Positions 1 to 18,833 of a stretch of DNA of 64,000 nucleotides are shown piece after piece. This DNA comes from Roseobacter insulae. Its GTDB lineage: Bacteria; Pseudomonadota; Alphaproteobacteria; Rhodobacterales; Rhodobacteraceae. The position numbers and the translations under genes were made by a program. The DNA lies in assembly GCF_019375555.1 (NCBI RefSeq), contig NZ_JAHXDN010000003.1:248001-312000 (forward strand), written 5' to 3'. Numbering within the stretch: position 1 is the stretch's first letter; the number at the start of each line of letters is the position of its first letter. Under the pieces are notes generated by a model. That model saw only the letters and a list, made by a program, of their open reading frames with translations, was not told where the DNA came from and made no database searches.

Positions 1-1459
1 CCATTGCCTGCATGATGGGGGCGGCGTCCTCATCGAGAAGATCGGCCAGTTCGTCGTCAAGGCTCGTGCGCCTGAGCGCCCCTCTCAGCGCCGTTGAAGC
101 CTGTAGCGCCTCGTTGCCCGAGAGATCGTCCAGCGGCTTTTCTACCCGTTTAAGAATTGGCCTGCGGCGTTTAAATCCATCACCCGGATTTGCATCTGCT
201 GGTTTCTCGGGGGAAACGGTCAGAATTTCCTCTTTTTCGTCTGGCTCCTCGATGTTCAGGCGCTTGTAGAGACCCTTGGTTCCGACGCGCAGGCCGAGCG
301 GCACGACCTTGACCAGCGCGCTGGTCAGCGCCTGGATGTCTTCAGGCTCAGGTCGAGCAATCGAGAGGACCGGGTAATCCTGCTGCGGGCCATACTCGAG
401 ATCCACGAAGGGACGTACCAGATCGCGGTTGATGATGGCCGAGAGCGCGCAGGCGTCCGCCTTCTCGATGTCTTCCTGCACCTCGCGATGCTCCTTGCCG
501 GAGCCAAGCCCGCCGGTTTCGGCGTCCGTTGTGGCCGTCTGTCCCAGCACCGCCTTGGAGATCTGCTTGTCGAGCCAGTCAGCGCGGCGTTCGTAGTGGT
601 CCGTGCTGGCCCCGACGTTCGAGCTTTCGATGAACTCGATCATCATGCTGTCGGGAATGATGGCGGCGCAATCGCCCGCAATCTCAGACACGGCCCGGAA
701 AAGCGTGTCCTTGTCCGCCTCCGACGCGCCCGCGCCCCATTTGCCGACGCGCAGGGGTTGGCCATAGGTTTGTGTGAATATCGCCCAGTCACGCTCGGTG
801 TAGGCTTTGAACATCCAGTTGAACATCGCGACGCGCGCCAGTCCGGAGCGCAGTGCCAGCCCCGATTTGGCTTTCATCTGGGCGAAGATGAACTTGAAGG
901 CGGGCAGCGGAAGTTCCTGCCCGTTCTCGTCCAGCATCATCGGCGTGGCCAGATCGGACCGGTCAAACCGGAACCAGCGCGGGTCGCGCCATTCAAGCCG
1001 CGCGGGACGCCACTGGCTCATGGAGGTTTCCCAGATGACCTCGGTAAAGCTGTAGCCCTTGCCGATCGCGTCCAAAATATCGAAAAGCTCCAGTGCCAGC
1101 TCCTTGCGGGTCAGCCACTTCCGAATGCTCTCAGCGATCCGCTCGTCCTCCGCGCTGTCGGTTGCGGGTTCGACGGTGATGTCGAGCTGGCTCACGGACC
1201 GGCGGCGGGTGCCCAGCACGCCGAGGTAGTGCGGATTGCGCTCCTCGATCGTCTCAGCCAGCTCCAGGTACCGGACCGGATCACCGCGATCCGCCGCGCG
1301 CAGGATCTCCGCCAGCCGCACCGGGTTCAGCCCTTCACCGGGGTAGCTGGTGATAGGCGATCGCACGCCACCCAGCGTCGGGGCGGCGACCTCCTTCTTC
1401 AGCTCGCCCCGGCGCATAGGATTGCCGAAGCGGTCGTAGATTACGGGTTTATTGGCCAT
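1..1459 (-). CDS. Mu gp29-like (DUF935) phage portal protein, 3' end cut by window edge
   Basis: This is the portal protein of the prophage head, the ring through which DNA is packaged and ejected. The visible 486 codons read MANKPVIYDRFGNPMRRGEL at the N-terminus. They contain the family hallmarks: an early PVRYLELAETIEERNPHYLG stretch, a KGYSFTEVIWE segment, and a C-terminal part rich in charged residues. Mu gp29 is about 510 residues long, so most of the protein is present and only the extreme C-terminus is lost at base 1. The start ATG directly follows the stop of the preceding gene and has an AAAGGAG ribosome binding site 7-8 bases upstream. It is the last late gene visible; head morphogenesis genes should follow outside the window. 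Confidence 0.93.
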   Translation of the reverse strand, partial: MANKPVIYDRFGNPMRRGELKKEVAAPTLGGVRSPITSYPGEGLNPVRLAEILRAADRGDPVRYLELAETIEERNPHYLGVLGTRRRSVSQLDITVEPATDSAEDERIAESIRKWLTRKELALELFDILDAIGKGYSFTEVIWETSMSQWRPARLEWRDPRWFRFDRSDLATPMMLDENGQELPLPAFKFIFAQMKAKSGLALRSGLARVAMFNWMFKAYTERDWAIFTQTYGQPLRVGKWGAGASEADKDTLFRAVSEIAGDCAAIIPDSMMIEFIESSNVGASTDHYERRADWLDKQISKAVLGQTATTDAETGGLGSGKEHREVQEDIEKADACALSAIINRDLVRPFVDLEYGPQQDYPVLSIARPEPEDIQALTSALVKVVPLGLRVGTKGLYKRLNIEEPDEKEEILTVSPEKPADANPGDGFKRRRPILKRVEKPLDDLSGNEALQASTALRGALRRTSLDDELADLLDEDAAPIMQAM

Positions 1460-1747
1460 TTAGCGGCTCCTTTGCACCAGGTCTGATTTCAACAGTTCGA
1501 TGCACGAGCGAGCGCGACCGAAATTTGGGAAACCGCGCACCTTGGAATTGTAGTATTCACGCTCTCGGTCCAACAGACGACGCCACACACCATGAAACCG
1601 ACGCCCGTCAGGCCGTTGCCCCTCAAGCATCGTGCGAATAAGGGTGCAAGCGTCCAAGCAGAGTTGCTCAACCTTACGATCACGCTTTTGCCAATAGCTG
1701 GCACGCGCTGCCATGTCGTTCGCAACTTCAGCAGGTGACGGCGACAT
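1460..1747 (-). CDS. small phage protein between Acb2-like gene and portal, unknown function
   Basis: A 95-residue basic protein with many Arg, Lys and Cys residues. It has no signal peptide or membrane segment, and I do not recognise a named domain. The ATG at 1747 is preferred because GAGG lies 6 bases upstream. A GTG at 1759 overlapping the previous stop (GTGA) would add four residues. The gene ends directly against the portal start, so it belongs to the late operon and is probably co-translated with the portal. Genes of this size and place are common in alphaproteobacterial Mu-like phages, but no role is known to me. Confidence 0.75.
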   Translation of the reverse strand: MSPSPAEVANDMAARASYWQKRDRKVEQLCLDACTLIRTMLEGQRPDGRRFHGVWRRLLDREREYYNSKVRGFPNFGRARSCIELLKSDLVQRSR

Positions 1748-1755
1748 CAGGTTCC

Positions 1756-2013
1756 TCACTTCGTCACATGCCGGACGGCGCGCATCACGGCATCCTCAAT
1801 ATGGGTCATGGCAAGGCTCAGATCGCGGCTCGCCATGCGCTCGCCGGTTGGATCGGTGCCGCCCACGGCATGCAGCGTCATCAAAAGGCTGTGCCCCTGC
1901 GCCTTGATCTGATCCACTTGACGTTTTTCCAGGTCAGTCAGCTTGCGATACTGCCGCATGGTCGAGTTGTTATGCGTCCGAGCGTCGGATGTGCTGTCGA
2001 TCCTGTCTGCCAT
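1756..2013 (-). CDS. acb2: probable Acb2/Tad1-hairpin family cyclic-nucleotide sponge (anti-CBASS)
   Basis: An 85-residue protein starting MADRIDSTSDA, with an AGGAGG ribosome binding site 6-7 bases before the ATG. The second half predicts two helices forming a hairpin: YRKLTDLEKRQVDQIKAQG, then a turn with GGTDPTGE, then a helix ending HIEDAVMRAVRHVT. This pattern matches what I remember of the Acb2 family, hexameric phage proteins that bind cyclic di- and trinucleotides and so block CBASS immunity. Acb2 was first described from Pseudomonas phage PaMx33, which I believe is also a transposable phage. The place between large terminase and portal fits an accessory gene in the late operon. Assignment rests on recalled family pattern, not on a search; a small unrelated phage protein is the alternative. 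Confidence 0.55.
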   Translation of the reverse strand: MADRIDSTSDARTHNNSTMRQYRKLTDLEKRQVDQIKAQGHSLLMTLHAVGGTDPTGERMASRDLSLAMTHIEDAVMRAVRHVTK

Positions 2014-2139
2014 TCTGGCCTCCTGTGTCTCGTTGCGGCGGGCTTGCCATTCTGAAATCCGTCTCACGCGGCGTCTTTCCAGTTGATGGGACGCGATATT
2101 GCCCGCATGATCCCGTTCGCGATGCGAAAGGACTTGCCG

Positions 2140-2316
2140 ATGAAAATCCCCCGAACCATCCCGCAGAGCGTCCGCAATGAGCTGGAAGACATGGAACGGC
2201 GCCGCACCGGTTTGAACCACGCGGATGCATGGACGGCATTTGTCGACTGGGCTGACCGGCACGGGGCCGAGATTTCCGTCCCCCCGGAACCGGAGGAGGA
2301 AGTCACCGCTTGGTGA
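2140..2316 (+). CDS. plus-strand accessory gene in the late operon, unknown function
   Basis: A 58-residue protein (begins MKIPRTIPQSVRNELEDMER) read against the surrounding operon. An AAAGGA ribosome binding site lies 8 bases before the ATG at 2140; in-frame ATGs at 2083 and 2110 are possible but lack one. The minus-strand alternative here is serine-rich and looks like a shadow, while this frame has normal composition with an acidic C-terminus. It lies convergent to the methylase and divergent from the Acb2-like gene, as an independently transcribed moron would. I do not recognise the family. It could be a small DNA- or protein-binding accessory protein. Confidence 0.6.
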   Translation: MKIPRTIPQSVRNELEDMERRRTGLNHADAWTAFVDWADRHGAEISVPPEPEEEVTAW

Positions 2317-2344
2317 GCCGTCCCGATGCTGCGAGAGCCCGTGT

Positions 2345-3244
2345 TCATCGCCCCTCCATATGGTCAGTCACCCACCGCGCATCCAGCGACGTGATCACCA
2401 GCTCAGGTGCCTGCGTTATCGTCTTGGACGCCAGTGAATAGGTGGTTTGAACCGGCACGATCTGCGCCCAGTCGAACAGCGCGCGGATCTGGGGTACATC
2501 GTTGATCGACAGGATGAAGTCGCCTTTCAGCGCTCGAAGCTGGGCGGCGATGACGTCAAAGTCCTCCTCCGAGAACAGCTCTTTGCCATAATCATCCTCA
2601 CAGCCGTGATAGGGCGGGTCGAGGTAGAAGAGCGCGCCGGGCCGATCAATCCGCTGGATGAAGTAAAGATAGTCCAGGTTCATGACCGTGACGCCGCTCA
2701 GGCGTTCATGCAGCGCCTCGAGGTCAGGCTCCAGCGTGGTCAGGTTGAACCGGGCAGGGCGGTCAGGTGAGACCCCAAAGGTCCGCCCATCGACACGCCC
2801 GCCAAAGGCCACACGCTGCAGGAAAAGAAACCGCGCTGCGCGCTGCAGGTCCGTGAGGGTTTCGGGGTCCACCGAGGTCAGCCGTTCAAACCCCGCCTGC
2901 GTCGTGATCTGAAACCGCAGCAGATCCAGAAAGGCCACGTAGTGTTCCTGAAGGATCCGGAAGAGGTTGTAGACGTCGCGGCTGCGGTCGTTGATGAACT
3001 CGGACCGTGCGGGCTTTGACCGGCGCAGGAATATCCCGCCCATGCCGACAAAGGGTTCCGCGTAGGTGGTATGCTCATGCGCGTCGATCACACGGCACAG
3101 CCGCTTGGCGAGATTGCGTTTGCCGCCAACGTAAGGGGCGATGGGTTTGGCCGAAGCCGGTTTTCGTTCACTCATGTTTAAGAGGCTTTCGATACGCAGC
3201 CGTCTGAAGGCGGCCATATCTGTCACTTGGTCGGCGGGGGTCAT
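2345..3244 (-). CDS. DNA adenine methylase, D12 class (N6-adenine)
   Basis: A 299-residue S-adenosylmethionine-dependent N6-adenine methyltransferase of the Dam/D12 class. The AdoMet-site motif YVGGKR is at residues 38-43, the FVGMGG motif at 65-70, and the catalytic DPPY at 209-212 within FYLDPPYHGCEDDYG. The ATG at 3244 overlaps the stop of the upstream ParB-like gene as ATGA, with GGGAG upstream. An internal ATG at 3175 would start closer to the conserved domain but lacks a clear binding site. It probably modifies phage DNA against host restriction or changes adenine methylation during replication. No partner endonuclease is visible, so it is an orphan enzyme. The target sequence cannot be read from the protein. 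Confidence 0.92.
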   Translation of the reverse strand: MTPADQVTDMAAFRRLRIESLLNMSERKPASAKPIAPYVGGKRNLAKRLCRVIDAHEHTTYAEPFVGMGGIFLRRSKPARSEFINDRSRDVYNLFRILQEHYVAFLDLLRFQITTQAGFERLTSVDPETLTDLQRAARFLFLQRVAFGGRVDGRTFGVSPDRPARFNLTTLEPDLEALHERLSGVTVMNLDYLYFIQRIDRPGALFYLDPPYHGCEDDYGKELFSEEDFDVIAAQLRALKGDFILSINDVPQIRALFDWAQIVPVQTTYSLASKTITQAPELVITSLDARWVTDHMEGR

Positions 3245-4125
3245 GTGCCTTTGCTCCCCGTGTCAGCGGCTGGTGAGACAGCCGTTGGCCCTTCGCATAA
3301 AGCTTTCGCCTTTAGTCTCGAACGCAATTCTCGTTCAACGTGCGCAAGCGCGATCTCCTTGCTTGTCTTTCCCAACACACGGGAACGGGAACGGGCATCG
3401 TCCAGGATGAACCCGATATCGATTGCGTCGAACACCCGAGACAGATGGAGGCGGAGGTACCTTTGGTTGCGGGCGATCGCGCCCAGCCAGACGCTGAGAA
3501 CGGGGCCGGTGTAGTAATAAGGATCGGTTCCGCAGATCGAACGTCGCACCGCCTGAAGGCCAAGGCTGACAGCTTCCGCCTCACCACATGCCACCATCTT
3601 TCTGATCAGGCCGATGGCGAATATTGCACCGGGCTTCTTCGATTTGCTCGAGGCGTTGGACGTCGCCAGTTGGCAAGCGCCTGCCTCGACCGCTGCCTGA
3701 CAGTCGATCGCCCATTGAGAACCGGCGGCGAGTTCGGCTCGATAGATGCCGAGGCCATCGATCTTGATGCGGTCACGATTTACAGCCGCAAACCCTAGCG
3801 CCTGTTGTGCGAGTGTCATCGGCACAACCATTGCGGGGATGGCTGTCAAGCCGACAAGCGCGGCTGCAGAGGCCCGGTGCTGACCATCCACGATGGCGAA
3901 CTTACCCAACTCAGTAGGCGCAACCAGGATGGGCTGGAACTTTGTCCAGTCGAACTCGTCGGCAATTCGCTGAACGGCCCGCCGACCTGTGGCCGTCATC
4001 TGCCTCTGATAGAGCGTGTCGATGCCCAGTTCTGCAATTGCTACCATTTTCAGGGAGGGCTGGGGCTGATCCCTCAAAGTAGCCGGCCTAAATCCTTTTA
4101 GATCGATGGGTTCCAAGTATTGCAT
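3241..4125 (-). CDS. ParB-like N-terminal domain protein (DUF6551-like)
   Basis: A 294-residue protein with a ParB/Srx-like domain. The diagnostic segment FAIVDGQHRASAAALVGLTA lies at about residues 76-95. The rest is helical, without a recognisable DNA-binding helix-turn-helix or HNH motif. Members of this group sit beside terminase or methylase genes in many phages and resemble DUF6551 proteins. The ParB fold can bind CTP or act as a nuclease, but which applies here is unknown. The ATG at 4125 overlaps the terminase stop as TGATG and has an AGGGGGGA binding site. A GTG one codon earlier is also possible. It is distinct from the ParB-like gene next to the transposase. Confidence 0.75.
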   Translation of the reverse strand: MQYLEPIDLKGFRPATLRDQPQPSLKMVAIAELGIDTLYQRQMTATGRRAVQRIADEFDWTKFQPILVAPTELGKFAIVDGQHRASAAALVGLTAIPAMVVPMTLAQQALGFAAVNRDRIKIDGLGIYRAELAAGSQWAIDCQAAVEAGACQLATSNASSKSKKPGAIFAIGLIRKMVACGEAEAVSLGLQAVRRSICGTDPYYYTGPVLSVWLGAIARNQRYLRLHLSRVFDAIDIGFILDDARSRSRVLGKTSKEIALAHVERELRSRLKAKALCEGPTAVSPAADTGSKGT

Positions 4126-5837
4126 CACACGTCCCCCCTGATCCGAGCGCCCAGTGGGCCTGCAAAGGGATCCCTGACGGCCATATCGCGGTCCCGGCGA
4201 GGTGTCATGGACATGCGCGCCTCTGCGCGCTGGTGGCGCTTGAAGGTGCTGGCGGCGCGGTAACCGTATTCGACCCAGCGCATCCGGCTCGCGAAATGCG
4301 CGAGCGCCAGTCCGATCGCATAGTCGCCGTGGCGTTTTTTGCCCTTCTTGTCCTTGGCCTCGCCCTTCTCGTTGGTGCGGATCTCCGGCACTCTCGGTAT
4401 GCCGCGCACGACCTTGACGGCGCGCATGTCGCCCAGGTGGTTTTCATCCGGACCGATGGCGATCATGTCGTCTTCGAAGGCGGTCTTCAGGGGCGGCATG
4501 TGGATGCGGTACCAGTCCTGGGTAAACTTGATCGCCCAGATCAGACCGGGGCCGTCCTCGTCCTCGCGCAGTCCGAAGCGCCGCCCCATGTCCTCGGCCA
4601 CGGTCCAGCCCATGCCGGTAGCGTCGAAGGCCGCGCCCAGCAAGCGTTCCTTCAGGTGCTCAAGCACCATGCCCACCACCAGTTTCTGCTCATCGCCGGG
4701 CACATTGCGCATCTCGATCGAGAAGGCCTCGGTGCGCTTGAGGTTCGGCTCGATCGCCAGCACCGGCAGCACTGACAGATCCGCTACGCGTGCAAAGTCG
4801 AAGCCGGCAGCGTAGCGGAAGTCCAGGTCGAGACTTCCAAGGACTTCCTCCAGTTCCTCGAGGAAAGGTGCCATCAGGCTTTTCTGCGCCAGCTTGTCGA
4901 GATGCAGGTAGTCACCGGGCAGTTCCAGGCGCAGCACCGGCGCCTCGGCCGTCATACGCGCCTCGATGAGAGGGGCGGGGATCCACGACCCCGACGACAG
5001 GGACGGGATACAGAACAGTTCCTCGTCAGCTCCGTCGCCATAGAAGTCGATCAGATCCTGCCGCCACCGCGCCTCGCCTTCCGGCGACCATTCATTGCCA
5101 CCGACCAGGCAGATGCGCGCATAGAGCCCGTCGAGCAGCGCGTCATCCAGATCGATCTTGAGGTGGTTGTAGGGTAGGCGTCCGCCGAGGATGTCCTGCA
5201 CCTGTTCGTTGAAGGCATTGTCGGCCCCGTCATGTGTCGAGCAGACGATCACCTGACCGCCCCAGATCAGGAAGGCCATTGCCGCCTTGATCAGCTCACC
5301 CAGATCGTCGACGAAGGCCGCCTCGTCGATGATGATCACGCCCTCCTTGCCGCGCAACCCGCGTGGCGCGGAGCTGAGTGCCTTGATCTGGTAGCCGGAG
5401 GCGAAGCGGATGCGGAAGGTCTGGATGGACTTGTCGCCGTCGATGTCGCCCTCCTCGAACAACCCGTCCTCGATCTCCGAGGCGGCAATGTTGAAGGCGC
5501 GCGCCCACATCGCGCAGGCATCGACGAACTCGCGGGTCATCTCCTGAGAATAGGAGATATACATCGCGTCCATGCCGCGCCGGGATTTGGGCCGCGAGGC
5601 GCGCAGGACGGCATAGGCCGCCAGCGCCCAGGTCAGCCCGATCCGGCGGGATTTCTCGATGAAGAGGACCTTGGTGGAGACCGTGTCGAGCAGGCCCACG
5701 GTTTTCGCCTGATATCCGAGCAGAACCTTGGGCAGACCGTTCTTATCCTTTGGGACCTTGTCGACAAGATCGTCCATGCCATTCATCGTCTCTCGGCGCT
5801 GGCGTTCCCATTCGGCTTTGGAAATCGGGGCGGTCAT
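4125..5837 (-). CDS. terminase large subunit, Mu gp28-like
   Basis: This 570-residue ATPase-nuclease cuts and packages prophage DNA into capsids. The variant Walker A segment EKSRRIGLTW is at residues 61-70 and the Walker B GVIIIDEAAF at 166-175. A C-terminal RNase H-like nuclease region begins near the FDFAR segment at about residue 343, followed by FDATG and a late GDYAIGLALAH. The length is close to Mu gp28 (about 550). It follows the DUF3486 small terminase gene after an inserted DUF6527-like gene and a plus-strand gene, which separate two subunits that are normally adjacent. It overlaps the ParB-like gene downstream. Confidence 0.95.
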   Translation of the reverse strand: MTAPISKAEWERQRRETMNGMDDLVDKVPKDKNGLPKVLLGYQAKTVGLLDTVSTKVLFIEKSRRIGLTWALAAYAVLRASRPKSRRGMDAMYISYSQEMTREFVDACAMWARAFNIAASEIEDGLFEEGDIDGDKSIQTFRIRFASGYQIKALSSAPRGLRGKEGVIIIDEAAFVDDLGELIKAAMAFLIWGGQVIVCSTHDGADNAFNEQVQDILGGRLPYNHLKIDLDDALLDGLYARICLVGGNEWSPEGEARWRQDLIDFYGDGADEELFCIPSLSSGSWIPAPLIEARMTAEAPVLRLELPGDYLHLDKLAQKSLMAPFLEELEEVLGSLDLDFRYAAGFDFARVADLSVLPVLAIEPNLKRTEAFSIEMRNVPGDEQKLVVGMVLEHLKERLLGAAFDATGMGWTVAEDMGRRFGLREDEDGPGLIWAIKFTQDWYRIHMPPLKTAFEDDMIAIGPDENHLGDMRAVKVVRGIPRVPEIRTNEKGEAKDKKGKKRHGDYAIGLALAHFASRMRWVEYGYRAASTFKRHQRAEARMSMTPRRDRDMAVRDPFAGPLGARIRGDV

Positions 5838-5917
5838 GAGGCGTACTCTTGTGGAGGTATTGGCTTCCCGACACAGTTCGCTAGGCTCGCCAATCCGTAC
5901 CTAAAAGGTGATTCCCG

Positions 5918-6409
5918 ATGATTGACATTGACACGATTATCGACGCTCTGGCAGCCGCCGACAGCGGCCTCAAAACCGTCAAAAGTGGGGCTGGCACCAT
6001 TGAGGCGATAAAACAACTTCTTAGGAATAAGAAGGATGGCGCTGAAGTTGATATTGAAGAACTGAAGCAGCTCATATCTGATCTTCGAGATGAAAACGTT
6101 GAATATCGCGAGGCACTTTGGGATGCGCGAAACAAGCTGCTTGAGCTTAAGCGAGAAGTCGAGGAGGCCGACGCCGCAGTAGAGATGCGTGCGCGATACC
6201 ACCTCAAGAAATTCAAAGCTGGCGGCACGGTTCTTGTTTGCAACAAGGAAGAGCGGATTGACATAATCCCAGAATATGTTTGTCCAAACTGTTACCTCAC
6301 TGACGCGCTCTTCATGCCGCTTCAGCCTGGTGGTTATGCTGGTTATCAACTTGCCTGCAACAAGTGCGGCCTTTGCGTGAATTGGGACAATCCAGAGAGC
6401 TCGATGTGA
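5918..6409 (+). CDS. plus-strand moron: coiled-coil protein with C-terminal zinc ribbon
   Basis: A 163-residue protein transcribed against the late operon and flanked by both terminase genes. Residues 45-90 are rich in Glu, Lys and Leu in a heptad-like pattern and probably form a coiled coil. Residues 120-156 carry CPNC and CNKCGLC, which look like a zinc ribbon. An AAAGGTGA binding site lies 7 bases before the ATG. The gene is visibly less GC-rich than its neighbours, suggesting recent acquisition. I do not know the family. Opposite strand, own composition and insertion between terminase genes all fit a moron expressed from the prophage; a function in host fitness or phage exclusion is only a guess. 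Confidence 0.8.
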   Translation: MIDIDTIIDALAAADSGLKTVKSGAGTIEAIKQLLRNKKDGAEVDIEELKQLISDLRDENVEYREALWDARNKLLELKREVEEADAAVEMRARYHLKKFKAGGTVLVCNKEERIDIIPEYVCPNCYLTDALFMPLQPGGYAGYQLACNKCGLCVNWDNPESSM

Positions 6410-6417
6410 ACCGCGCA

Positions 6418-6705
6418 TCAGCACACCTCCCAATAGCCGTCGCGCAGCCAGCCATGCCAGTGACCGACGTGATTGATGGAAGGGTTCAGCGTTGGTTCTG
6501 AAAGTGAACCGTTCCAGTTCCACGAGGTGCCTTTCGGCGGTTTGAAGCCATCGCCAACCAGGATGCGAGCGCGGATCCCGCAGCCGCAGGGACAGTAGTA
6601 CCAGAAGCCATACTTTCCGCCGCCGTTACCGCTCAGCGAGAAACTTCCCGGCACCTCGGCCTTTAGCCAGGTGTCGCGATCTGAAAAGTGAATGGCCCGG
6701 ATCAT
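6418..6705 (-). CDS. DUF6527-like small cysteine-rich phage protein
   Basis: A 95-residue protein with a YYCPCGCGIRARI cluster at about 41-53. It is followed by WNWNGSLSEPTLNPSI and an ending with HWHGWLRDGYWEVC. The CxCGC cluster, the PTLxPSI segment and the final aromatic DG motif match the DUF6527 pattern found in many phages and in some ubiquitin-like operons. Function is unknown; metal binding by the cysteines and histidines is likely. Its ATG overlaps the stop of the small terminase gene (ATGA), so it is translated with it. It is an extra gene between the two terminase subunits. Confidence 0.7.
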   Translation of the reverse strand: MIRAIHFSDRDTWLKAEVPGSFSLSGNGGGKYGFWYYCPCGCGIRARILVGDGFKPPKGTSWNWNGSLSEPTLNPSINHVGHWHGWLRDGYWEVC

Positions 6706-17700: not shown

Positions 17701-18582
17701 CTACTTGCGCCCCCGGGCCTTAAAGGGGACCGCGCCCGCCGCCTCGACGCGCTCGGCGAGAAATGACTGCAGCTCCTCGCTGAAGTCGCGCACAAAGCGT
17801 CGCCGCGCGTCCTTTGGCGCGCGGGCGTAGGCTTCATATAGCTTCCTGTGCGCCTTATCGACGGGATCGACCGCCGCTGTGCCGGGCTGTTTGCGGCGGT
17901 CCAGCACTTCCTTTGCGGACTTGGCTTTCCCGAGGGACAATTCGCGGCAGATGACGGGCCGGTCGTCGGGCGCGCATTTTGCGAGAGCCTGAAGATCAGC
18001 CAGCGTGACACGATGCGGGGCTGATCGAAGCATCGAAATAGCTTCAGGGTCGAGCGCTTGTCCTGCCGACACCAGCCGTCGGATCGTCCGTTCAGACTGG
18101 TTCATTTTGTCCGCTGTCGAGGTAACAAATGATGCGACGGCCATGTTGTCCGTCGCATCCCATCTTTTGGCTGCGAGGGCCGCACCTGAAACTGCCCTGG
18201 TCTCCGGGTACATCCGCTCGTAGACTGCCTTGCGCTCGGCCAGAAACACGGCCAGATCCAGCGGGTTCAGGTCGGTGTGGGCAAGGTTGTCATCGATCTC
18301 CGCCAGCATTGCCCAGTCATCGGTGCAGTCCCAGACCTTGCAGGGTATCTTCTGGCGCTTCATGCGGCGGAAGGCCTCGATACGGTGCCCTCCGGCGATC
18401 AGGCGCAGAATGCCATCCTGATGGGCCACCTTGCGCACATGGATCTCCGATTGCAGGCCGATCTCCTTGATAGAGGCGATCAGGCTGGTAACGGCGGTCT
18501 CGGAGAAGGGACGCAACCTGCCATCGGTCCGGATGGCATCAATGTCGATTTCCAGGGTGTTGAGCAGCTTCGCGTCGCGCAT
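17701..18582 (-). CDS. ParB-like protein upstream of the transposase
   Basis: A 293-residue ParB/RepB-type protein. The N-terminal ParB box contains GLQSEIHVRKV and LIAGGHRIEAFRRMK. A central KorB-like helical part includes NQSERTIRRLVSAGQAL and HRVTLADLQALA. It sits directly ahead of the transposase gene, a position where several transposable phages carry a ParB-like gene but Mu does not. It may regulate early genes or organise phage DNA; no parA is nearby, so a plasmid-type segregation role is unlikely. The ATG at 18582 overlaps the previous stop (TGATG) with GAGGGGG upstream. Confidence 0.85.
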   Translation of the reverse strand: MRDAKLLNTLEIDIDAIRTDGRLRPFSETAVTSLIASIKEIGLQSEIHVRKVAHQDGILRLIAGGHRIEAFRRMKRQKIPCKVWDCTDDWAMLAEIDDNLAHTDLNPLDLAVFLAERKAVYERMYPETRAVSGAALAAKRWDATDNMAVASFVTSTADKMNQSERTIRRLVSAGQALDPEAISMLRSAPHRVTLADLQALAKCAPDDRPVICRELSLGKAKSAKEVLDRRKQPGTAAVDPVDKAHRKLYEAYARAPKDARRRFVRDFSEELQSFLAERVEAAGAVPFKARGRK

Positions 18583-18833
18583 CACAGGTCCCCCTCGGAA
18601 GCCCGTCGCGCGATGTCCGCCGCAAAAAGGATGATGTCATGCAAATTCAGATCGGCGACAACACCGTCCACACGCACTTGCATGCGGAAGTTGGACACGG
18701 ACCGGATAACGTCAAAGCTCTTTTCCTCGGCTCCCTCGCCCACCGTTCCGACGGCAACTTTCTCATGTAGAAAGCCGTTGAATTCGCTCCGGTCTCCGAC
18801 CAAAAATGTCACTTGTTGCGCAATGGATTTCAT
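18582..18833 (-). CDS. small early phage protein, unknown function
   Basis: An 83-residue acidic protein with an alternating strand pattern, ending in a helix (DIILFAADIARRASEG). It overlaps both neighbours by one base (TGATG junctions), indicating coupled translation. No family is recognised. Confidence 0.68.
   Translation of the reverse strand: MKSIAQQVTFLVGDRSEFNGFLHEKVAVGTVGEGAEEKSFDVIRSVSNFRMQVRVDGVVADLNLHDIILFAADIARRASEGDL

What the first reader, a model, noticed from the sequence alone, without database searches (positions are those of the whole stretch)
1756..2013. Probable Acb2-type anti-CBASS sponge in the packaging region of a Mu-like prophage
The 85-residue product has a helical hairpin whose last helix (HIEDAVMRAVRHVT) and turn match my memory of the Acb2/Tad1 hairpin family. 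The gene has an excellent binding site and sits between terminase and portal. If right, this prophage shields itself or competing phages from cyclic-nucleotide immunity in a Roseobacter host, a setting little studied. Most pipelines would call it hypothetical.
Basis: partly seen in the sequence, partly recalled or inferred. Interest (0 to 1): 0.72.

Follow-up and report, generated by a model that had tools for sequence, protein, structure and literature searches.

The report
Phage sponge against bacterial alarm signals
A dormant Mu-like virus in this bacterium carries a small protein of a known family that soaks up the alarm molecules bacteria use against viruses; it is a real but largely expected new member, slightly different in build, sitting in a gene slot where such viruses also keep other optional genes.

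Summary
The 85-aa product (1756-2013, minus strand) scores 58.9 bits against Pfam Acb2_Tad1_hairpin (cut-off 27). AlphaFold gives the two-helix hairpin; the eight best PDB fold matches are solved Acb2/Vs.4 chains, at weak E-values. Y22 aligns with the ligand tyrosine of T4 Acb2. The gene lies in the late operon of a Mu-like prophage, between terminase and portal. Beyond the finding: (1) most relatives collected share a near-invariant N-terminal arm (S..D.R..NN..RH.YR) that T4 Vs.4 lacks; the window copy has lost the RH pair. (2) The terminase-portal junction is an optional-gene slot: 26 of 42 assessable junctions are empty, 16 carry extra DNA, five of 42 an Acb2 and five of 42 a D12 methyltransferase. 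(3) The host has no SMODS cyclase but keeps a shortened CBASS-type 2TM-SAVED effector ORF. (4) The cultured Rhodobacter Mu-like phage RcapMu also has a PF24729 gene. Sponge activity, hexamer and ligand are inferred, not shown. New member of a known kind.

The parts
1756..2013 (-). acb2-like gene, 85 aa; Acb2/Tad1 hairpin protein. Residues 5-23 conserved N-terminal arm, helix 27-51, turn 52-62, helix 63-84; Y22 and K37 align with ligand residues of known Acb2s
   Evidence: PF24729.2 58.9 bits; models; alignments
2019..2024 (-). ribosome binding site AGGAGG, five bases before the ATG
   Evidence: sequence read
1460..1759 (-). 99-aa ORF, unknown; its GTG overlaps the acb2 stop (GTGA), so probably translationally coupled; relatives lie just upstream of terminase in five of 40 other Mu-like loci
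   Evidence: no PHROG match, no match in phage records
2345..3244 (-). D12-class adenine DNA methyltransferase, slot neighbour, probable anti-restriction cargo (role inferred)
   Evidence: PF02086 82.9 bits; phrog_56; PADLOC type II methyltransferase models
3241..4128 (-). ParB-like protein, slot neighbour, role unknown
   Evidence: PF02195 24.3 bits, under its cut-off of 26.3; phrog_1033
4125..5837 (-). terminase large subunit, one edge of the slot
   Evidence: PF03237 25.6 bits over cut-off 22, phrog_2
1..1459 (-). Mu-type portal protein, other edge of the slot; runs off the window start
   Evidence: PF06074 314 bits
15565..17697 (-). Mu-type transposase A, shows the prophage to be Mu-like
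   Evidence: PF02914 169.8 bits

Best explanation
The gene encodes an Acb2-family cyclic-oligonucleotide sponge. It is made with the late head and packaging genes when the Mu-like prophage is induced or the phage infects. It most likely assembles, like known Acb2s, into a hexamer whose pockets (Y22 and K37 from the N-terminal region and helix 1, plus the C-terminal helix) bind and hold the cyclic di- or trinucleotides made by CBASS-type cyclases, so that effectors such as 2TM-SAVED membrane proteins are not triggered and the cell lives until phage release. Shown here: family membership, predicted hairpin fold, conserved ligand-type residues, purifying selection, place in the late gene run. Inferred: hexamer, ligand, anti-CBASS effect, timing.
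For: Curated profile match far over cut-off. Foldseek puts solved Acb2/Vs.4 chains at ranks 1-8 of 52. Y22 and K37 align with Y11 and K26 of the solved Acb2 chain 8h2j and with Y8 and K23 of T4 Vs.4; T4 Y8A is reported to disrupt dinucleotide binding (PMC12657218, passages). Y22 is Y in 72 of 75 and K37 is K in 74 of 76 aligned rows. dN well under dS. Co-directional genes from terminase to portal, touching or overlapping apart from one 331-base gap. The target kind of system exists in the host family: SMODS cyclases in 38 of 394 genomes, and the host keeps a shortened 2TM-SAVED effector ORF.
Against: No binding or hexamer test was possible. The single-sequence PDB search found nothing significant and the Foldseek E-values are weak (0.39 at best). 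The window copy departs from its relatives at four near-invariant positions (R19M, H20R, M33V, D38A). T4 F82, reported to stack on the bound nucleotide (PMC12657218, passage), aligns with T84 here. The host lacks a SMODS match, and across 394 genomes Acb2 does not track SMODS (2 of 17 Acb2 genomes have both, against 38 of 394 overall).
Confidence: 0.77

Rival explanations
1. Same fold and sponge principle but a shifted ligand: the armed relatives use their conserved N-terminal arm (R12, N15, N16, R19, H20, R23) as a lid that selects a signal other than those of T4-type Acb2, for example a different trinucleotide or a Thoeris, type III CRISPR or Panoptes-type nucleotide.
For: Arm positions are near-invariant (S7 72 of 72, D10 72 of 73, R12 73 of 73, N15 72 of 72, N16 70 of 72) and under purifying selection (residues 5-23 median dN 0.20, dS 1.23), yet disordered in the single-chain model (residues 1-16 pLDDT under 50), as if ordered only in the assembly or with ligand; T4 Vs.4 has only seven residues before Y8.
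Against: Ligand-type Y and K are kept; no ligand data; the arm may only stabilise the hexamer; one slot copy (L013) lacks the arm (one search set it aside; seen).
Confidence: 0.2
2. A decaying copy: the window allele has lost the arm's RH pair and other near-invariant residues and no longer binds well.
For: Four near-invariant positions changed; window pairs have median dN 0.46 and dS 1.43 against 0.20 and 1.04 for all pairs; long end branch 0.91 against a median of 0.23.
Against: Open frame, strong ribosome site, gene run with touching neighbours, dN still well under dS, helix 2 the best conserved part.
Confidence: 0.08
3. A structural or packaging protein that only resembles Acb2, since it sits among head genes.
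For: Position between terminase and portal; some other relatives also lie among head or tail genes (Aussie, RcapMu; L027 by my reading).
Against: 26 of 42 related junctions have nothing there, so it is dispensable there; several of eight relatives viewed lie away from head genes, near what look by eye like early regulators (not profile-tested).
Confidence: 0.03

Closest known systems
Acb2 with solved structures 8h2j, 8h2x, 8ixz (Pseudomonas phage; PaP2 in a legend of PMC11722364)
   Same: two long antiparallel helices; Y and K fifteen residues apart with G three after the K
   Different: window protein has a longer conserved N-terminal arm and a shorter turn between the helices; 15-19% identity in fold alignments
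T4 Vs.4 / Acb2 (PDB 7uq2)
   Same: same Pfam family (71.4 bits); Y8 and K23 align; best fold match
   Different: 21% identity, no arm, F82 is T84 here; the T4 gene lies among small genes between regB and denV of a lytic phage
RcapMu44 of Rhodobacter Mu-like phage RcapMu
   Same: PF24729 (50 bits), Mu-like phage, among late head genes, deposited note says similar to cyclic-nucleotide binding domain
   Different: hairpin starts at residue 11, so no room for the arm; found with the unarmed relative L003; lies after the capsid gene, not between terminase and portal
Tad1 (Thoeris anti-defence 1)
   Same: shares the C-terminal hairpin motif
   Different: Tad1 has an N-terminal beta-sheet (PMC12043709, passage) and 123-138 residues in the chains found; this protein has 85 and no strand of three or more residues

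Membership tests
Acb2 (Pfam PF24729 Acb2_Tad1_hairpin, stand-alone) | significant match to the curated hairpin profile over its length | tested here: met
   58.9 bits, cut-off 27, profile 2-58 of 58
Acb2 (Pfam PF24729 Acb2_Tad1_hairpin, stand-alone) | two long antiparallel helices as in solved Acb2 | tested here: met
   helices 27-51 and 63-84 at high pLDDT; Acb2/Vs.4 chains rank 1-8 in the PDB search but at E 0.39-1.6; the short N-terminal helix reported for Acb2 is absent from the model
Acb2 (Pfam PF24729 Acb2_Tad1_hairpin, stand-alone) | ligand tyrosine and lysine conserved | tested here: met
   Y22, K37; Y8 of T4 from PMC12657218 passages; that Y11 and K26 of the Pseudomonas phage protein contact ligand is recalled
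Acb2 (Pfam PF24729 Acb2_Tad1_hairpin, stand-alone) | homo-hexamer with inter-subunit pockets | not testable with these tools
   only single-chain prediction on hand
Acb2 (Pfam PF24729 Acb2_Tad1_hairpin, stand-alone) | binds cyclic di/trinucleotides and blocks CBASS | not testable with these tools
   needs bench work
Tad1 | N-terminal antiparallel beta-sheet domain before the hairpin | tested here: not met
   85 aa; no strand in the better model, two two-residue strands in the first; Tad1 description from PMC12043709 passages
Mu-like transposable prophage | Mu-type transposase A, B-type ATPase and Mu-type head genes | tested here: met
   PF02914, AAA_22/TniB, Phage_Mu_Gp27, Phage_Mu_F, Mu-like_gpT, Portal_Mu; prophage ends not mapped

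The most novel reading that the evidence does not exclude
The armed Acb2 branch is functionally distinct: its conserved N-terminal lid changes which immune nucleotide is captured. And the terminase-portal junction of Mu-like phages is a late-expressed counter-defence slot (sponges, methyltransferases and unknown cargo such as the 99-aa and ParB-like genes) from which new anti-defence genes can be read.
Probability: 0.22. Interest if true: 0.6.

Novelty: new member of a known kind. Interest (0 to 1): 0.36.

Why it matters
It shows that Acb2-family genes are carried by Mu-like prophages of this bacterial family, in which SMODS cyclases occur in 38 of 394 sampled genomes. The conserved N-terminal arm is a concrete, testable handle on how Acb2 proteins choose ligands, and the terminase-portal slot is a place to look for further counter-defence genes.

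Tried and rejected
Tad1 membership was rejected (no beta domain). A purely structural role was judged unlikely (26 of 42 related junctions have no gene there). Repeated capture of Acb2 by the slot was tested: in an 80-row tree the four slot copies then known form one group in 0 of 200 bootstrap trees, but the test of one clade does not reject a single origin (p-AU 0.093), so it is not claimed. The window copy's best kin are 60-64% copies in other phages, the slot copies L151 (=L004), L152 (=L006) and L158 (=L013) are 41-45% alike, but the viral-contig slot copy L189 is 58%. Acb2 against SMODS across 394 genomes: no link seen. The 99-aa ORF found nothing in phage records. The single-sequence PDB search found nothing significant. 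NCBIfam gave no name. The promoter and terminator scans of 1400-6600 gave no more than shuffles. The host TIR hit is a 1337-aa TIR-nSTAND1-WD40 protein; its TIR part also passes Pfam ThsB_TIR barely (22.6 bits, cut-off 21.2), with weak PADLOC ThsB matches, so a Thoeris link is not excluded.

Papers: Acb2 with Mu-like, 0 papers; Acb2 with prophage, homologs and lysogen, two reviews; a CBASS/Rhodobacter/prophage/roseobacter search held 138 papers at three of four terms, and none of the 20 listed contains CBASS; a search on anti-defence, hotspot, terminase, portal and Mu-like held 11 papers, of which none of the ten listed is about this slot by title and start of abstract. These cover only the open library held here. 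One solved chain is named Acb2 homolog 43 (9ptq, E 0.23); I did not find its paper. That Acb2 occurs in a Pseudomonas Mu-like phage (JBD67) is recalled and was not checked.

Rows dropped: of 105 Acb2-like ORFs in 110 loci, 19 were duplicates, six were dropped by length, missing start or score, and of the 80 left I put 75 plus the window into A2, leaving out L006, L011, L013, L034 and L092. Three slot copies (L004, L006, L013) are therefore not in the conservation counts. The sequences were gathered with the window and its kin as queries, and one search kept the best 80 of 267, so the counts favour armed relatives. In the trees five rows were cut to a later start (L004, L006, L013, L049, L085), and one search left out L008, L011, L012, L017 and L024 for long branches. 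Of 47 portal matches six were not fetched: G121:C26 and C14, G216, G023:C11, G042 and G078 (no upstream DNA, partial, or a portal only 27-29% alike).

Full report
Observation. The ORF at 2013-1756 on the minus strand is 85 codons with an ATG start and an AGGAGG site five bases upstream. It lies in a co-directional run: terminase large subunit, ParB-like gene, D12 adenine methyltransferase, a 331-base gap, this gene, a 99-aa ORF, Mu-type portal. Terminase/ParB, ParB/methyltransferase and this gene/99-aa ORF overlap by four bases, and the 99-aa ORF stops directly before the portal ATG. The element is Mu-like: Mu transposase, B-type ATPase, gp27, F-like and gpT proteins, and an S24-type repressor-like gene on the other strand beyond the transposase.

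Family. Pfam gives one family, PF24729.2 Acb2_Tad1_hairpin, 58.9 bits against a cut-off of 27, E 5.8e-16. PHROGs gives phrog_717 (7.9e-7) and phrog_1454 (0.0031), both of unknown function. It is the only PF24729 match in the 4.88-Mb host assembly. A 15-sequence profile has Acb2, Tad1 and Vs.4 entries as the best eight of 18 solved sequences, E 0.0016 to 0.011, the rest being weaker and mostly unrelated; a 76-sequence profile finds eight, again these, E 0.0014 to 0.0048. One of these, 7uav, is deposited as an ABC transporter ATPase; its sequence group includes 8smd, which PMC11722364 calls Tad1 (legend seen).

Structure. AlphaFold with 76 relatives gives helices 27-51 and 63-84 at high pLDDT, with residues 1-16 below 50. 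Foldseek against the PDB ranks Vs.4 (7uq2) and Acb2 (8h2x, 8h2j) chains first to eighth of 52, with E 0.39 to 1.6 and query TM 0.45 to 0.60: consistent, not significant alone. A first model with 15 relatives ranked such chains first to fourth and eighth of 126. Hexamers could not be modelled.

Ligand residues. The solved Acb2 chain 8h2j has Y11, K26 and G29 opposite Y22, K37 and G40; T4 Vs.4 has Y8 and K23 there. That T4 Y8A disrupts dinucleotide binding and that F82 stacks on the ligand is from passages of PMC12657218. F82 aligns with T84, which is T in 74 of 76 rows. Of two unarmed relatives in the same alignment, L018 keeps the phenylalanine and L003 has alanine, so its absence is only weak evidence against dinucleotide binding.

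The armed relatives. In the 76-row alignment the stretch S7..D10.R12..N15N16..R19H20.Y22R23 is nearly invariant: S7 72 of 72, D10 72 of 73, R12 73 of 73, N15 72 of 72, N16 70 of 72, R19 71 of 75, H20 71 of 75, Y22 72 of 75, R23 73 of 75 (rows with a letter there). It behaves as coding: in 16 ungapped genes residues 5-23 have median dN 0.20 and dS 1.23. T4 Vs.4 has only seven residues before its tyrosine. The window copy differs at R19M, H20R, M33V and D38A. The arm is a feature of this set of unknown function; I infer a role in assembly or in closing the pocket. I saw no description of it, but of the papers only passages, listings and one short announcement (PMC13348362, text, part 1 of 2) were seen.

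Position as cargo. I searched 394 genomes of the host's family with the portal: 44 have a match, 47 matches in all. I fetched the DNA upstream of 40 of the 46 matches other than the window's own, and added the window and four viral contigs: 45 loci. Three could not be assessed (L173, L180, L190). Of the other 42, 26 have terminase and portal within 100 bases and 16 carry 180 bases or more between them (counted by hand from those outputs; L164 has a broken terminase). Five of 42 hold an Acb2: the window, L151, L152, L158 and L189; without the window, which was chosen for it, four of 41. Five of 42 hold a D12 methyltransferase: the window, L144, L152, L153 and L187. L145 holds a GapR-like gene and L161 a 466-codon open frame without a Pfam match; the others hold small unknown or no clear ORFs. 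One further Mu-like prophage (L146) has an Acb2-like ORF elsewhere, upstream of its gp27 gene. So the junction is an optional-gene slot; that it favours counter-defence genes is an impression, and no test of enrichment was made.

Spread. PF24729 occurs in 17 of 394 family genomes, 18 matches, four of them in this slot. I viewed the gene neighbourhoods of eight close relatives: several sit near what look by eye like early regulators and one (L027) among tail-like genes (not profile-tested). In phage records the window protein's best hits are a record named Dunaliella viridis virus SI2 and Sinorhizobium phage Aussie. RcapMu has a PF24729 gene after its capsid gene; passages of PMC8601537 describe it as a temperate Mu-type phage. 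Microbacterium phage Statler has already been published with a putative Acb2 (PMC13348362).

Host immunity. The host has no SMODS match and no Cas1. It has a SAVED match of 138 bits on another contig. The 300-aa ORF there matches PADLOC SAVED2-SAVED_TM from profile position 80 onward (338 bits) and Saf_2TM from position 89 of 152, so the start of the membrane part is missing from this ORF; whether it lies in another frame was not worked out. With no SMODS match in the genome there is no such cyclase beside it; other cyclase families were not sought. A second SAVED fragment has an internal stop. The lineage has therefore probably met CBASS. SMODS occurs in 38 of 394 family genomes (37 over the cut-off), and two of the 17 Acb2 genomes (G023, G094) have both.

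Mechanism. Best reading: a late-expressed Acb2 sponge. [quoted passage not shown] the place among late genes fits. Known is the family; new are the member, the arm as a feature of note, and the slot. Novelty: new member of a known kind.

Noticed in passing
window 2083-2316, + strand: A 77-aa ORF on the opposite strand in the gap between methyltransferase and acb2; no Pfam or PADLOC match. Could be a separately expressed extra gene or chance.
   Followed up: partly
window 3241-4128 and 17701-18585, - strand: Two different ParB-N-like proteins in one Mu-like prophage, one in the terminase-portal slot and one beside the transposase.
   Followed up: no
window 1460-1759 and L153, L157, L163, L165, L171: Relatives of the 99-aa ORF (33-50% alike) lie directly upstream of terminase in five of 40 other Mu-like loci, unknown function.
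   Followed up: partly
L191:5364-6263: Host ORF for a CBASS-type 2TM-SAVED effector with its start missing, in a genome without a SMODS match.
   Followed up: partly
L193:4473-8486: Large host TIR-nSTAND1-WD40 protein, a likely defence protein; TIR part just passes Pfam ThsB_TIR.
   Followed up: no
L161:1466-2863 (- strand): A 466-codon open frame in the terminase-portal slot with no Pfam match.
   Followed up: no
L145:1482-1748 (- strand): A GapR-like DNA-binding gene as cargo in the same slot.
   Followed up: no
L184:5980-6270 (RcapMu44): An Acb2-family gene, annotated hypothetical, in the cultured Rhodobacter phage RcapMu; its deposited note says similar to cyclic-nucleotide binding domain.
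   Followed up: partly
L185 (HQ332136, Dunaliella viridis virus SI2): A record named for an alga but classed Caudoviricetes carries an Acb2-family gene 78% like one from a viral contig, so it is probably a bacteriophage.
   Followed up: no
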